The notes beneath the pieces are model-generated. The model worked only from the letters and a program-made list of their open reading frames with translations. It had not been told where the DNA came from and ran no database searches. A program made the translations under genes and the position numbers. 40,265 bases of DNA from Thermogemmatispora onikobensis (lineage in GTDB: Bacteria; Chloroflexota; Ktedonobacteria; Ktedonobacterales; Ktedonobacteraceae). Shown one piece after another: positions 15,709-34,680 of this stretch (its first letter is position 1; each line of letters begins with the position of its first letter). The stretch covers positions 1 through 40,265 of the forward strand of contig NZ_BDGT01000042.1 in the NCBI RefSeq assembly GCF_001748285.1, in the 5' to 3' direction.

Positions 15709-18441
15709 ATGTCGTCATCCCAGTTCCTGTCGTCAGCATCGGCGCTGGTCGCCGCCCCTTCACGTCCTTCTCGGCGCCAGCCAGCGATCGTACGCCAGTG
15801 CAATCGCCTGGCAAAGCAGCTGGCCGTCCTGGCCACGAATCGTGTGCGCCCTCTCTGCGAGCAGGCTGTCCAGGCGGGCGAATGGGACGCGCTCGCCGAA
15901 CCGACAGGGTTAGCTCTGCCTCCCGAGGAGAGCGTCGACCTCTACACACAGGGTCTCTGCTGTCTGGCTCTGACTGCGGCTCTGGCCAGATCGATCAGCA
16001 AGCGCGAGTCCGAGCAGGATCAAAACGAGCTGATCTCTGTGCTCTCCTGGCTGCCGCTCTCGCTACAGGACCCTTTCAAGCAGATGCTCCTGGCCGTTCC
16101 CCTGGCCCAGACCATCGCCGAGCTGCAGGAGCTGAGTGCAGCCGCCCTCTCCTTATCGGCAGGCGAGCAACTGGCGACGCGCGCCACGGCGCCGACGTTG
16201 CAGGCGCTACAGCAAGATCCACTCATCTACTGCTACGAGCAGTTCCTGCGTCACTACCGTCCCAGCCTGCGCAACGCCGGCAGCATCTACGCTACACCGG
16301 CGCCAGTAGTCTCCTACATGGTGCGCAGCGTCGACCTCGTGCTGAAGCAAGCCTTCGCCTTACGTCAGGGCCTGGTCGAGTTGGGCAGCTTCGAGGTCAT
16401 CGATCCTGCGGTTGGTAGCGGCGCTTTCCTGCACGGCCTGATTGAGTTTCTCTATAGTCAGCTCGGCCAACGGGCCGAGCTGGAGCGCTGGTCACACTTT
16501 GTGGTCGAGCAGCTTTTGCCCAATCTGCGCGGCTATGAACTCCTGCCAGCTCCCTGGCTGGTGGCCTACCTCAGCCTTGGTCTCAAGCTGGCCGCCTGCG
16601 GCTACGACCTGCGCCAGCGGCCCGGTCAACTCAGTCTTGCCCTTGGGGACGGTCTGCTCTGGCTGGCTCGCGAACCGGCCCATACCGGCCTGCCTGTGCT
16701 CATCGGCAACCCTCCCTATGGCAACTTCGGGCGCCCCACACGCTACCCCTGGCTGCGCCTTCTGCTTCAGGATTACAAGCGCGACCTGGGCGAACGCAAG
16801 CTGAACCTGGATGATGACTTCATCAAGTTTATTCGCTGCGGCCAGTGGTACATCGAGCAAGCTGGCTGCGGTTTGCTGGCCTTCATTACGAGCCATACTT
16901 ATCTTGACGGCCTGACCCACCGCCGCATGCGCGAGAGTTTGCTCGCCAGCTTTGACGAGATCTATCTGCTTGATCTGCACGGCAACAGCCAGCGAGCAAC
17001 CCCAGCCGGGGACGGGGACGCAGAACCCGATGAGAACGTTTTCCCCATCCGCCAGGGCGTGGCCATCGGCCTTTTTGTCCGGCACCGGGACGCTGCCCGC
17101 TCTCGGCGGACCGCACCCAGACGGGCGACTGTCCACTACGCGGCCCTGCGTGGCAGCCGCCGCGAGAAGTACGCCCGTCTGGAGAGGATGGACCTGGCAA
17201 GCACCCCCTGGCAACGCCTGCAGCCGCAGCCCCGCCTCTACTTCTTTGTACCGCGCATTCTGACTCGCCTGGCCGAATGGGAGCGCTACCCAGCACTGCC
17301 AGAGATCTTCCCGATCTACGGCACAGGAATCAAAACCCACCTTGACGCCGTGCTCGTTGGCCCTTCCGACGAAGCCATCGCCAGCCAGATTGCCACCTAT
17401 CTGGCCGAGCACGGCCAGGAAGAACAGGCCCAGGGGACGAGAGCAGCCTCCGACGAGCGACGTCGCGGCACGCCGCAGCACAAGGCCCGGCTCCTGCGCC
17501 AGCTCAGCGGGCTGCCACCTCAACAGCTCTACCGCGACTACGCTTATCGCCCCTTCGACACGCGCCGTATCGCCTATTGGCCTCCAGCCATCGAAGCCGG
17601 CGACCACCGCTTTGCCCTGATGCGCCACGCCCTCCCGCCCAATATCCTGCTGGTCACAACGCGCCAGCTGAGCCAGGGCAGCTTCCAGCACGTCTTTGTC
17701 AGCCAGACCCTCACCGATATGTGCCTGCTTTCAAGCGCAACCCGCGAATGCGCCTACGTTTTCCCCCTCTACCTGTTCGAGTTTGAGGAGGCACCGGAAG
17801 AGGCAGGCACGGGGGCACGAGCGCGAGCACGAGCGCGAGCACGAGCAGCGCGCCCCAATCTGTCCCCTGCCTTCATTGCCGCTCTCGCGAGCCGCCTCAA
17901 CCTGCGCTTCGTGCCCTGGGGGAGCGGCGACCTGCTCAGCAGCTTTGGACCGGAGGCCGTGCTGGCCTACCTGTACGCCATTCTCCATGCGTCCATCTAC
18001 CGCCAGCGCTACAGCGAGCAGCTCAGTAGCGACTTTCCGCGCTGTCCTCTGCCTGCGCATCGCACCAGCTTTCGCCTGCTCTATTGCATTGGCAGCCGCC
18101 TGCTCAAGCTACACCTGCAGACCAGCCTTCCCCATCCCTCGGCCTACCTTTTGCCTCCCGCCCAGGCCCAGGCCAGGCGCCTGCGGATCGAGTTCGTGCA
18201 CTACACAGCGGACGGGCGGCTCTGGTTAAACGCCCAGCAGGCTCTGGAGGGCCTGCCGCCCGAGTGCTGGCGTTTCCGCATTGGGCATTACCAGATCAGC
18301 GCGCGCTGGCTACAGGAGCGCCTCGGGCAGGAGCTGACTCCCGCTGAGTATGAGCGCTACCGCCTGCTACTGGCCATCCTCACCGAGACGCAGGAGCTGA
18401 TGGCCCAAAGCAGCAGCGCTCTGGAAGCATTGCTTCCCTGA
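15709..18441 (+). CDS. Type ISP-like N6-adenine DNA methyltransferase with target-recognition domain, no nuclease or helicase
   Basis: 910 residues. After a helical N-terminus of about 165 residues come the ISP-type coupler motif (DPLIYCYEQFL, SIYATPAPVVSYMVRSVD, 170-210), SAM motif I DPAVGSGAF (232-240), catalytic motif IV GNPPYGNF (333-340), LNLDDDFIKFIRCGQWYIE, AFITSHTYLDGLTHRRMR, LDLHGNS (421-427), ENVFPIRQGVAIGLFV, YRPFDTRRIAYW, and a C-terminal type ISP specificity-like domain (ALEGLPPECWRFRIGHYQIS to ERYRLLLAILTETQELM, about 825-900). Known ISP restriction enzymes are near 1500 residues with N-terminal Mrr nuclease and helicase; these are absent here and from the flanks. All methylase motifs are intact, so it probably methylates adenine at one target without matched cleavage. 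An Ala-Arg repeat interrupts residues 703-712. Confidence 0.86.
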   Translation: MSSSQFLSSASALVAAPSRPSRRQPAIVRQCNRLAKQLAVLATNRVRPLCEQAVQAGEWDALAEPTGLALPPEESVDLYTQGLCCLALTAALARSISKRESEQDQNELISVLSWLPLSLQDPFKQMLLAVPLAQTIAELQELSAAALSLSAGEQLATRATAPTLQALQQDPLIYCYEQFLRHYRPSLRNAGSIYATPAPVVSYMVRSVDLVLKQAFALRQGLVELGSFEVIDPAVGSGAFLHGLIEFLYSQLGQRAELERWSHFVVEQLLPNLRGYELLPAPWLVAYLSLGLKLAACGYDLRQRPGQLSLALGDGLLWLAREPAHTGLPVLIGNPPYGNFGRPTRYPWLRLLLQDYKRDLGERKLNLDDDFIKFIRCGQWYIEQAGCGLLAFITSHTYLDGLTHRRMRESLLASFDEIYLLDLHGNSQRATPAGDGDAEPDENVFPIRQGVAIGLFVRHRDAARSRRTAPRRATVHYAALRGSRREKYARLERMDLASTPWQRLQPQPRLYFFVPRILTRLAEWERYPALPEIFPIYGTGIKTHLDAVLVGPSDEAIASQIATYLAEHGQEEQAQGTRAASDERRRGTPQHKARLLRQLSGLPPQQLYRDYAYRPFDTRRIAYWPPAIEAGDHRFALMRHALPPNILLVTTRQLSQGSFQHVFVSQTLTDMCLLSSATRECAYVFPLYLFEFEEAPEEAGTGARARARARARAARPNLSPAFIAALASRLNLRFVPWGSGDLLSSFGPEAVLAYLYAILHASIYRQRYSEQLSSDFPRCPLPAHRTSFRLLYCIGSRLLKLHLQTSLPHPSAYLLPPAQAQARRLRIEFVHYTADGRLWLNAQQALEGLPPECWRFRIGHYQISARWLQERLGQELTPAEYERYRLLLAILTETQELMAQSSSALEALLP
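17815..17844 (+). repeat. Hexamer repeat (GCACGA/GCGCGA)5 inside the methylase gene
   Basis: Five hexamers alternating GCACGA and GCGCGA encode (Ala-Arg)5 in a linker just before the last part of the methylase catalytic region and its recognition domain. Being a multiple of three, length changes would stay in frame. Confidence 0.85.
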
Positions 18442-30203: not shown

Positions 30204-30735
30204 GAACGCTGCTTCCTTCCTTTATCGGCTATTGGGCTGGCAGTGGACCGGGCCACGGGGCGCGCTGCTCTGCCGAACACGCTGACGGCTCGCCCCCGGT
30301 TCGCTGGCTTTGGCCTTTCCTTCGCTGGCACTGGGAGGTATCGGCCAAGATTATACGGCTGACAGGGTCTGGACGTCAAATCATCTTCGCTCCCCTTTTG
30401 CCACCACCGGCCTACGGCAGACCCAGGCCCCATCTCTCGCTTCCTCCCCCGATCGTCCTATGGCCATCCCTCAAATTTGGCCAATTTTTGGGCCAGACCT
30501 GCCGCCCGCCGTCGCTCCCACCACATCCCCAATCTGCTCAGGAAGCTGTTTTCTGCGCCTTAGATCCTCCATTTCAGGCTCAGCAAATCTTCTACCTGCC
30601 GATATTATCAATATCGCTTGTCTGTTGACGATACATGTCAATCCGCTTATCCTCACAAAAAGAGGCAGGACTCAGAGGGGGTCTGCTGCCGCTCGCGTGA
30701 CGTCTGCCGTCAGGAAAGAAGCAGGAGGAAGGGAG
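30204..30735. other. Divergent intergenic region with palindromes
   Basis: 532 bases between the DUF512 and XRE-TPR genes. Near the right end are a palindrome CGATATT-ATC-AATATCG (30600-30616) and TTGAC-N7-GTCAA (30625-30641); the latter includes the -35 of a plus-strand promoter. The remainder (30204-30599) shows no supportable gene. Confidence 0.6.
30625..30653 (+). promoter_or_regulatory. Promoter with overlapping inverted repeats, XRE-TPR gene
   Basis: TTGACG (30625-30630), 17 bases, TATCCT (30648-30653), giving a leader of about 75 bases. TTGAC/GTCAA arms (30625-30629, 30637-30641) and the AT-rich palindrome at 30600-30616 are plausible regulator sites, perhaps for autoregulation by the XRE protein. 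Confidence 0.55.
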
Positions 30736-32007
30736 ATGAGTGCCCCAAACGATCCGTGGTGGGTCAAGATGGGCCTGCCCGCCTTTGAAGCTGGCCCCGA
30801 TGGCTATCCCCGGCCAGGCCAGGTGACCCGCTACTATCGCCAGCAGATGGTCAAAGCCTGTGGCTGGTTCTGGAGTCAGAAGGATCTCGCCCTGGCCCTG
30901 GGCCTGAGCGAGATCACCGTGCGCAAAATGGAGGCTACCGACATGGGTTTCGATTCGATCTCTCGACGCCGGGCCGTGGCTCGCTTGCTCAACATTCCCC
31001 CGGTGCTGTTCGCCCTGGCCGCCCACCCGGATGACTCCGCGCTGGTGGGTCCGCAACACGATCCCGCGACCTTTTTCATCTTGCACGGCTCGCCTCTCTT
31101 CACCGACAGCAATCTGCCCGACTGGCAGAGCGCCGGGCACTTCGTGCAAGAAGCCTGGATTCACCATCATCAGACCAGCGCTCGCCCCGATCTGGCCCGT
31201 CTGCACTGCCTGCTCAACGACCTCTACCGCCAGCTCCCTTTTACGATGGGGCCGGAGCGCACCAGCGCGCTGCAGCTCCTGACCAGCGCCCACATGCTCT
31301 ACAGCACGGCGCTCCGCGATCTCCAATGCTTTGAGCCGGCCCTCCAACAGGCCACCAAGGCCCTCCATTGGGCCCACCAGAGCAACGCCTACGACGCGAT
31401 GGCCGCAGTCTACTTCTGGGTCGGCCTGACCTTTTTAGATGCGAACGATCCCAAACAGGCGCTGAAGTACTTCGAAAAAAGCAAAGTGCTGCAGTCCCAG
31501 GCGCCGGCCTCCCTGAAGGCCGCGCTCTTGCTCCACTATGGCGTTGCGCGCGCCCTGACCGCGCGCAGCGAGCAAGAGCGGCGCTCGGCCCTGGCTCCCT
31601 TCGATCGCGCCGCCAGCCTCATCAGGAGCGGCCAGACCCAGGAAGATCCCTTCTTTGTCAAGGCCGACGTGGACCGCTATCACGTCGACCGCGCCCGTGC
31701 CCTGCTGTCGCTGGGGCGTCCCCGTGAGGCCCTGGCCGAGTTAGAGCAGCGCCGTCCCGCCTCTGAGTTGCGGCGCCGCAGCATCTACGCCATCATTCTG
31801 GAGGCTGAAGGCCAGTTCCAGTGCGGCGAGCTGGAGCAGGCGGCCTACCTCCTGAAGCAATGTCTCCCTCATGCTCGCGGGCTGCACTCCTTCCTCAACA
31901 TGCAACGCATCCAGGCCCTCTACAAGCGTCTGAAGACCTCGCCCGCCGCTCATACCCAGGCCATCGTGGAGCTGGGGAACCAGCTCGGGACGGACTTCCC
32001 AGGGTAG
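30736..32007 (+). CDS. XRE-type helix-turn-helix regulator with TPR-like repeats
   Basis: 423 residues. Residues 46-67 form a Cro/CI-type helix-turn-helix (WSQKDLALALGLSEITVRKMEA). After a conserved linker comes an all-helical C-terminal region of tetratricopeptide-like repeats (FEPALQQATKALHWAHQ, VYFWVGLTFLDANDPKQALKYFEKSK, RARALLSLGRPREALAELEQ, GQFQCGELEQAAYLLKQCL). The HTH-TPR layout is shared with RRNPP-type peptide sensors, but no peptide gene was found. Its DNA targets are unknown; its own promoter region has two palindromes. ATG at 30736 has AGGAGGAAGGGAG upstream. Convergent with the second DNA methylase gene, 51 bases away. Confidence 0.82.
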   Translation: MSAPNDPWWVKMGLPAFEAGPDGYPRPGQVTRYYRQQMVKACGWFWSQKDLALALGLSEITVRKMEATDMGFDSISRRRAVARLLNIPPVLFALAAHPDDSALVGPQHDPATFFILHGSPLFTDSNLPDWQSAGHFVQEAWIHHHQTSARPDLARLHCLLNDLYRQLPFTMGPERTSALQLLTSAHMLYSTALRDLQCFEPALQQATKALHWAHQSNAYDAMAAVYFWVGLTFLDANDPKQALKYFEKSKVLQSQAPASLKAALLLHYGVARALTARSEQERRSALAPFDRAASLIRSGQTQEDPFFVKADVDRYHVDRARALLSLGRPREALAELEQRRPASELRRRSIYAIILEAEGQFQCGELEQAAYLLKQCLPHARGLHSFLNMQRIQALYKRLKTSPAAHTQAIVELGNQLGTDFPG

Positions 32008-32058
32008 AGGATCTGCGTCCGAGACAGAAGACGGGGCCGGGCGTACTCGCCGCGCCGG

Positions 32059-34680
32059 TCACTCGCGCTCAAGCCAGCGCTCGACGGCGCTGAATGCTCG
32101 CAGTACTCCCTCCTTGATGGCAGGGGCGACCAGGGGGAAGCTCTGGGGAGCAAAGAGCAGGTCGCGCAGGTCACTGGCGCTCAGACCGTAGAGATGGGCC
32201 ACAATGGCATCGATCTCATTCTGAAGTTGCTGGCGTTCCTGGCGCCTCGCCAGTGACAGGACGGGCGCGTCTTCGCTCCCCAGTAGCTGGCCACGCAGGG
32301 CCTGAAAGGCGGGGTCAAGGCAGACAAGGCGAGCGACGCGGCGGGCGATGGCCCGGCAGTGCGGCTGATCCTCAGCGAAGTGGGGCACCGGTAGCTGGCG
32401 GACCTGAAACATGGTGAGATCGACCGTGATCTTGCGCCGGATCACGTAGTCAAGCACAAAGGAATTGAGGAGGCCGCAGAGGCAGGCCAGTTGCAGCGGC
32501 GAGAGGGCAGGCTCGTAGGCCCTGCTGAGCGGTTGGGCCGGCCCAGCGCTCAGCAGGGCCGCCAGCCGGTCCCGGTCGAGGCGCCAGGGACGGACGTAGG
32601 TCAGTGTATTGCCAAGAAAGCAGCCGGTGGGGAGAATGGTCGCGATCAGGCTGCGCTCATTGGTGCCACTGGCCACCCGCCGAAAGGCCAGGCGCGGCAC
32701 CTCGCAATCGAGGCGGACATCCCTGGCGCTCAGGGGGCCGCGGCCATGAGCGGCCAGCAGAGCTGCCACGCGCTCGTGGCGCCCGCTGTCAGGCAAGAGC
32801 TGGGGCCAGCGTTCCCTGGCCAGCGCATCCAGTGTCCGCTCCAGACGAGCCAGCTCGCTGCGCAGCAGGGCCGGCAGCCCGACGGCGGGGAGGACATAAT
32901 AGCGCGGCGCGGCAAAGGAGGCGCAGTACTGGTGGATGGTCTTCCCCTCGTAGAGGGGCCAGCCCTGGCCAGCACGGTTGAAGAGGGAGCGATCGCTCGT
33001 CAGATCGAACTCGCGCGCCAGCATCACCGACCAGGCGTCGGCCTCCTCTTCCGCCTGCTGCTCGCCAAGCAGCGGTCTGGCGCCATAGATGCGGCTGAGG
33101 AGATCGGCCTCGCCCTGAGTACGCAGCTCCAGCAGCGAGAGGGTTTCCGGGGCAAAGCGGGCGATCAGGGCGTAGGGCAGGCGAATGGTGAACCGCTCTT
33201 CGTCGCTCTCCAGAACAGCGGGATCACGCAGCATAAAGGCGGCCCGCACCTGGGCGGTAGGCTGGGGTCGCTCGCGCGCAAAAACCAGCAAGGCAAACTT
33301 GCAGCGGCTGTCGATAGGGAAGAGGGCGGCGCGGTTCTCAAAGCCCAGCAGCACGAGCAGGCGCCCCTCTTCCAAGAGCAAGCGGCGCAGGCCGGTGCTG
33401 CTCTGATCGGTATAGAGGCTGGCCGGCACCACGAGACCAGCGTGGCCGCCGGGACGTAGCAGGCGATAGGAGCGATCGACAAAGAGCTTATAACTGTTAA
33501 GGTCGCCACCGCTCGCTTTACCGCCACCGAGAGCAGCACGCTGAGCTGGATAGAGGCCGCTGGCCCGCACATAGCGGCTCAGCTCCACAGCCAGCTCATC
33601 GAAATCAACACCAGAGAGGCAGCGCTCGACCACCAAACGACGGTAGAGCAGCGACTCCTCGCAAGTTGCCTCCTGTGGCGCCTCCGCCGCACCAGAGGAG
33701 CAGACACAGGCTCGGGCCAGGTAGTCGCAGGCCGCCACCAAAAAGGCGCCTGTGCCCATTGCCGGATCGACGACCCTGAGCGCCAGCACCTCCTCGACGC
33801 CCCGGCAGCCTTTCACCAGCGGCTCCAGCGTCCGGCGCACCAGATAGGAGACCAGGGCGGGAGGCGTCGAGTAGCTGCCGCTGCTCTTGCGCCCGCTACC
33901 GGGAGCCAGATAGAGGTCGCCAGGGGAGATAGTACGGATAGGGCGCGCCACTGGGGAGAACCTCCGACCGTCGCAGCCCACCGAGGGGACAGTGAGCCGT
34001 GCAGGAAGAACGAAGCGCCGTCCCCGGTCCTGTACCTCGCACAGCGGCTCGCTGGCCAGGCGCGGCTCATAGGCCAGCAGATCCTCATAGAGCGCCGCCG
34101 GCGGCCAGATCCAGCCAGTCTCAGCGCTCACCTGCGCGGCGAGCGGGACAGACTTGAACAGGGCCAGGATCTGTGCCAGCGGCGCATCGGGCAGCGGCAG
34201 GGCTTCCAGATAGGGAGTAGTCGCGGGATCAAAGAGGCGGCCAGGATAGGGGGCCAGGGTCAGCCCACGCCGCCGACAGCCGGCGCGCAGGAGCGCCCAT
34301 CGCTGCTGCAAACCTCTCCAGAGGCGGTAAGCAGGAGCCTCGGCCCCCGCAGTCAGTTGCTCTCGCTCACCAAACGGGTCCTCTACTCCCAGGAGGCCGG
34401 CGCGTTCGAGGGTTTCGGTCACCAAGAGGCGATAGACCAGGCGCAGCGCCTGCGCACAGAGGCCCTCCAGATCCTCCAGAGCCAGCCTGGCCAGTTGCCC
34501 ATATTGAGCGCCCATTGTCGGCTCAGCCTCTCCCGCGAGCAGCCGCTGCGCCTGCCTGACCAGCGCCGTCAGCACCAGGACAATCGCCTCGCAGATACGC
34601 GCTTTCAGAGCCGCGACACCGACGGCAGCCTCCATCTCTCGCTGGTCGGTCACCGACGCCTTTTCAGGAGATCGATCCAT
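32059..34680 (-). CDS. Eco57I-type DNA adenine methylase-like protein lacking the catalytic NPPY segment
   Basis: 873 residues. N-terminal helical region (1-200), then SYSTPPALVSYLVRRTLEPL (269-288), SAM motif I VVDPAMGTGAFLVAA (303-317), motif II SGVDFDELAVELS (356-368), then directly DLNSYKLFVDRSYRLLRPGGHAGLVVPASLYTD (393-425), FENRAALFPIDSRCKFALLVFA, and the C-terminal recognition/tail motifs RRVASGTNERSLIATILP, CGLLNSFVLDYVIRRKI and RQLPVPHF. In this family the stretch between motif II and the NLYxLF-like block contains (N/D)PP(Y/W/F); here only about 25 Gly/Ala-rich residues remain and no such motif occurs anywhere. The reading frame is intact, so the protein may be made but should not transfer methyl groups. 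Start: ATG at 34680 fits the N-terminus; a clear Shine-Dalgarno is missing, and an ATG at 34857 is possible. Confidence 0.8.
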   Translation of the reverse strand: MDRSPEKASVTDQREMEAAVGVAALKARICEAIVLVLTALVRQAQRLLAGEAEPTMGAQYGQLARLALEDLEGLCAQALRLVYRLLVTETLERAGLLGVEDPFGEREQLTAGAEAPAYRLWRGLQQRWALLRAGCRRRGLTLAPYPGRLFDPATTPYLEALPLPDAPLAQILALFKSVPLAAQVSAETGWIWPPAALYEDLLAYEPRLASEPLCEVQDRGRRFVLPARLTVPSVGCDGRRFSPVARPIRTISPGDLYLAPGSGRKSSGSYSTPPALVSYLVRRTLEPLVKGCRGVEEVLALRVVDPAMGTGAFLVAACDYLARACVCSSGAAEAPQEATCEESLLYRRLVVERCLSGVDFDELAVELSRYVRASGLYPAQRAALGGGKASGGDLNSYKLFVDRSYRLLRPGGHAGLVVPASLYTDQSSTGLRRLLLEEGRLLVLLGFENRAALFPIDSRCKFALLVFARERPQPTAQVRAAFMLRDPAVLESDEERFTIRLPYALIARFAPETLSLLELRTQGEADLLSRIYGARPLLGEQQAEEEADAWSVMLAREFDLTSDRSLFNRAGQGWPLYEGKTIHQYCASFAAPRYYVLPAVGLPALLRSELARLERTLDALARERWPQLLPDSGRHERVAALLAAHGRGPLSARDVRLDCEVPRLAFRRVASGTNERSLIATILPTGCFLGNTLTYVRPWRLDRDRLAALLSAGPAQPLSRAYEPALSPLQLACLCGLLNSFVLDYVIRRKITVDLTMFQVRQLPVPHFAEDQPHCRAIARRVARLVCLDPAFQALRGQLLGSEDAPVLSLARRQERQQLQNEIDAIVAHLYGLSASDLRDLLFAPQSFPLVAPAIKEGVLRAFSAVERWLERE

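What the first reader, a model, noticed from the sequence alone, without database searches (positions are those of the whole stretch)
33496..33576. DNA adenine methylase with its NPPY catalytic segment precisely missing in frame
The gene at 32059-34680 keeps SAM motif I, motif II, the NLYxLF-like block, FENR/LFP block and the whole C-terminal recognition region. Yet the segment that carries (N/D)PP(Y/W/F) in Eco57I-type methylases is replaced by about 25 Gly/Ala-rich residues (369-393). The only PP dipeptides are before motif I. There is no stop or frameshift over 873 codons, so it looks maintained rather than decayed. It could be a catalytically dead DNA-binding subunit (pseudo-methylase), perhaps working with another methylase, or a recent in-frame deletion.
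Basis: partly seen in the sequence, partly recalled or inferred. Interest (0 to 1): 0.75.

Follow-up and report, generated by a model that had tools for sequence, protein, structure and literature searches.

The report
Broken DNA methylase gene, recent deletion
In this bacterium (genus Thermogemmatispora) a DNA-methylating enzyme gene has lost a 732-base piece that holds its catalytic centre; close relatives keep the whole gene or have lost it altogether, so this is most likely ordinary gene decay and not a new kind of protein.

Summary
The gene is on the minus strand (34680-32059, 873 aa). It lacks the FDAVLGNPPWE motif of Eco57I-family adenine methyltransferases. Four of the five other Thermogemmatispora species held carry a full-length orthologue (about 1113-1141 aa) at the same conserved place. 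Against them this copy lacks 244 consecutive codons (732 bp), removing motif III (CGNSLIG) and motif IV (NPPW). The junction is at about 33580-33585, with 3-5 bp of microhomology. The "Gly/Ala-rich replacement" at residues 369-393 is native sequence that directly follows the deleted part in every orthologue. The missing piece is nowhere else in the genome. The closest species (about 92-96% nt identity in flanks) has lost the whole gene. dN/dS on this lineage (0.205) equals that of the intact lineages (0.205). If the gene has been neutral since the deletion, the neutral time is at most about 10% of the branch, so the lesion is recent; a frame without stops is then not surprising. A maintained pseudo-methylase is not formally excluded, but nothing specific supports it. 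Ordinary decay of a solitary methyltransferase; low interest.

The parts
32059..34680 (-). internally deleted Eco57I/DrmMI-like adenine DNA methyltransferase gene, 873 codons
   Evidence: orthologues of about 1113-1141 aa in four congeners
33586..34680 (-). retained N-terminal part (residues 1-365): N-terminal region, SGSYSTPPAL, SAM motif I DPAMGTGAFL, motif II GVDFDELAV
   Evidence: 57-70% identity to the four orthologues over residues 1-370
33580..33585 (-). deletion junction: 244 codons (732 bp) with CGNSLIG (motif III) and FDAVLGNPPWE (motif IV) missing here; CTG (3 bp; AACTG, 5 bp, in two relatives) microhomology
32062..33582 (-). retained C-terminal part (residues 367-873): last blocks of the catalytic domain (DLNSYKLF, LLRPGGHAGLVVP, FENR..LFP) and recognition region
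   Evidence: 73-83% identity to orthologues; PDB profile match to BsaXI and TaqI after their NPPF/NPPY

Best explanation
This is a formerly intact, solitary adenine DNA methyltransferase of the Eco57I/Type IIG/DrmMI kind. In this species it was broken by a recent single 732-bp deletion between very short repeats (CTG, 3-5 bp). The deletion happened to keep the frame, which one deletion in three does. It removed motif III and motif IV (NPPW), so the product cannot methylate and probably cannot form the normal methyltransferase fold; it is a young pseudogene. Shown: the missing segment, its presence in orthologues at the same locus, its absence elsewhere in the genome, whole-gene loss in the nearest species, and no long neutral period. 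Inferred: loss of activity, loss of fold, the slippage-type mechanism, and absence of a residual role.
For: Four congeners, including T. aurantia and T. tikiterensis, have full-length orthologues with FDAVLxNPPWE and the same flanking genes. The missing 244 codons are found nowhere else in the 5.56-Mb assembly; only diverged paralogues match. The closest species (G003) keeps only the first ~7 codons and has lost the rest of the gene, so the gene is dispensable in this clade. dN/dS on this lineage is 0.205 against 0.205 elsewhere. A neutral tail over 40% of the branch (the time since the split from G003) is 14 log units worse than none; the upper limit is about 10%. With neutrality since that split, 7.1 stops would be expected and none is seen (P about 0.0009), whereas a recent lesion at the limit expects about 2-3 (P about 0.08-0.17). 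The homologues aligned, from other phyla too, keep G-F-D....NPPW as invariant columns.
Against: The frame is open and the average constraint on the branch is not relaxed, so continuing selection on the shortened protein cannot be told from a very recent lesion. No reads were available to exclude a local assembly error. AlphaFold models of the intact and the deleted protein were of low confidence (mean pLDDT 43 and 46), so the folding argument rests on motif mapping, not on a model.
Confidence: 0.88

Rival explanations
1. Maintained pseudo-methyltransferase: a shortened protein that binds DNA through its recognition region, perhaps with another methyltransferase of the cell.
For: Open frame of 873 codons, no relaxation of dN/dS on the lineage, C-terminal part with low dN/dS (0.099 against 0.149, not significant); other intact Eco57I-type methyltransferases exist in the genome.
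Against: Only one genome has it; the sister species lost the whole gene; the deletion removes the stretch from motif II to just beyond motif IV, which by the motif mapping lies inside the catalytic domain; N-terminal dN/dS is if anything raised (0.43 against 0.285, not significant).
Confidence: 0.05
2. Assembly or sequencing artefact: the segment is present in the organism but was dropped from the contig.
For: Draft assembly in 112 contigs; no reads could be examined.
Against: The junction lies inside a contig and the two sides share only 3-5 bp, too short to make an assembler collapse them; the segment is on no other contig; the frame is kept.
Confidence: 0.06
3. The deletion predates the split from the sister species, and that species later lost the rest of an already dead gene.
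For: Both nearest species lack a working gene.
Against: It needs at least 40% of the branch as neutral, which is rejected under neutral decay, and 7 stops would be expected.
Confidence: 0.01

Closest known systems
Eco57I-family / Type IIG-like adenine methyltransferases (Pfam PF07669; PADLOC REase_MTase_IIG)
   Same: Motif I, motif II, the NLYxLF-like and FENR..LFP blocks and the C-terminal recognition region are kept; the best PADLOC model for both the deleted and the intact protein is REase_MTase_IIG PDLC03622.
   Different: Motifs III and IV are deleted; no nuclease domain was found by Pfam in the intact orthologue.
DrmMI, adenine methyltransferase of class 1 DISARM
   Same: The intact orthologue matches DrmMI models with E down to 6.1e-58.
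   Different: The neighbouring proteins scanned include no DISARM gene.
Solitary (orphan) methyltransferases under gene loss
   Same: Methyltransferase without a recognised adjacent nuclease, present in some congeners, lost or broken in others. That such genes come and go is, from my own knowledge, a common pattern; related papers were only located, not read.
   Different: Nothing of substance.

Membership tests
Eco57I-family adenine DNA methyltransferase (PF07669) | SAM-binding motif I and acidic motif II | tested here: met
   DPAMGTGAFL at 305 and GVDFDELAV
Eco57I-family adenine DNA methyltransferase (PF07669) | catalytic motif IV (N/D)PP(Y/W/F) | tested here: not met
   Absent in the window copy; present and invariant in the nine aligned homologues. 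The window copy descends from the family but is not a working member.
Type IIG restriction-modification enzyme | N-terminal nuclease domain fused to the methyltransferase | tested here: inconclusive
   No nuclease family found in the intact orthologue by Pfam; a diverged PD-(D/E)XK domain was not excluded
DISARM class 1 (DrmMI) | drmA, drmB, drmC genes next to the methyltransferase | tested here: not met
   PADLOC scan of nine flanking proteins and of the Type ISP-like protein of the window shows none
Pseudo-methyltransferase partner subunit | motif loss shared and conserved among orthologues | tested here: not met
   Four orthologues are intact, one genome lacks the gene
Pseudo-methyltransferase partner subunit | retained SAM or DNA binding and a phenotype | not testable with these tools
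   needs protein and mutants

The most novel reading that the evidence does not exclude
The 873-aa protein is kept by selection as a DNA-binding or regulatory pseudo-methyltransferase that folds without the strands around motifs III and IV.
Probability: 0.05. Interest if true: 0.5.

Novelty: new member of a known kind. Interest (0 to 1): 0.12.

Why it matters
It is a clear small case of loss of a solitary methyltransferase: intact in four species, recently broken in one, fully deleted in its sister, all at one conserved locus. It also shows that an open frame alone does not mean that a motif-less enzyme is maintained. If the rival were true, it would be a methyltransferase fold working without its catalytic strands, which would be surprising.

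Tried and rejected
The first genome-contig scan with the deleted protein found nothing because of its patterns; the orthologue alignment found the named congeners. AlphaFold of the intact and the deleted protein gave mean pLDDT 43 and 46, too low to compare folds, so no fold search was run. Translocation of the segment elsewhere in the genome was rejected. A deletion older than the split from the sister species was rejected under neutral decay. A DISARM context was rejected. One branch-model fit (gene SOSresp) did not converge (its likelihood was below that of the simpler model) and was ignored. Paper searches gave nothing specific on this gene.

Full report
What is there. The gene runs on the minus strand from 34680 to 32059 and encodes 873 residues without a stop. 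Pfam finds only the first part of an N6-methylase core and the last 40% of the Eco57I domain (profile 96-169 of 171). The best PADLOC models are Type IIG restriction-methyltransferases and DrmMI. The only PP dipeptides are at residues 193 and 273, before motif I at 305.

Relatives. A search of 101 genomes shows that four of five congeners carry the orthologue in two blocks, residues 1-370 and about 343/365-873 of the query, separated by a stretch that the window copy lacks. The congeners are Thermogemmatispora aurantia A1-2, T. tikiterensis T81 and two Thermogemmatispora MAGs. The alignment places the gap between GVDFDELAVE and LSRYVRAS. The missing part is 244 codons in three species and 253 in the fourth. 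It holds LARLSLWLF, NLRCGNSLIG (motif III), a variable insert, and FDAVLGNPPWEILKPNSREFF (motif IV).

Locus. The gene sits between the same genes in the four relatives, a PDZ/radical-SAM-like DUF512 protein gene on one side and a pyridoxamine-oxidase-like gene on the other. The aligned DNA blocks break at window 33580/33582 and nowhere else in the gene in three of the four relatives; the most diverged one has a further break. The missing DNA is not elsewhere in the genome; only diverged paralogues with their own NPPY/NPPW match. The two ends of the deletion share 3 bp (CTG), 5 bp (AACTG) in two relatives.

Sister species. G003 is the closest (96% identity in the DUF512 gene; about 92% over 11.7 kb). 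Its single-contig chromosome starts and ends inside this locus. It keeps the start codon and about six further codons of the gene (MDRSPEK), then jumps to sequence beyond the stop codon. So the whole gene was lost there.

Timing. A codon model on the shared 861 codons gives omega 0.205 on this lineage and 0.205 on the others (p = 0.99). If part of the branch is allowed to be neutral, the best fit is zero and the limit at a 1.92-log-unit drop is about 10% of the branch; 40% costs 14 log units. Flanking genes put the split from G003 at 40% of the branch. Under neutrality since that split 7.1 stops are expected; at the 10% limit about 2-3. Hence either the deletion is recent, or the shortened protein has been under constraint. 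The first is simpler, since no second genome carries the deletion and the nearest one has dropped the gene. The two losses are then independent.

Mechanism. Profile matches to solved structures show what is lost. In the enzymes of 8cxz and 7lni the block with motifs I and II runs up to a CDSL motif that matches the CGNSL of the orthologues. In BsaXI (8w0p) and TaqI (1g38) the NPPF/NPPY aligns with the deleted NPPW, and the block after it aligns with the retained DLNSYKLF...LVVP part. From general knowledge of the fold, the strand before NPPY lies next to the strand of motif I in the central sheet, so its loss should disrupt the sheet (inference). AlphaFold could not test this because the alignments were too shallow.

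Verdict. A recent deletion has broken a solitary Eco57I/DrmMI-like adenine methyltransferase. It is ordinary gene decay. That the frame survived has a one-in-three prior and needs no selection. Assembly error (about 6%) and a maintained pseudo-enzyme (about 5%) remain open.

Noticed in passing
window 15709-18441 (+): A second, complete methyltransferase gene (910 aa) with IGNPPYG at residue 334 and a Type ISP C-terminal specificity domain; PADLOC calls it REase_MTase_IIG.
   Followed up: partly
window 30507-32050; L072:119-343; G004:C143:5728-5853: A TPR-containing regulator-like gene (+ strand, about 30775-32007) directly beside the methylase is complete only here: cut down in G003, a remnant in G004, and absent in three other congeners, where the methylase end directly abuts the next gene region.
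   Followed up: partly
L072:1-120 and L073:13880-14000: The single-contig chromosome of the sister species starts and ends within this very locus, next to its methylase deletion; its pyridoxamine-oxidase-like gene also looks frameshifted there (141 of 192 codons matched), so the record may hold local sequence errors at its ends.
   Followed up: no
window 33586-34680 against 32062-33582: On this lineage the N-terminal part of the methylase has dN/dS 0.43 and the C-terminal part 0.10 (others 0.285 and 0.149); neither difference is significant.
   Followed up: no
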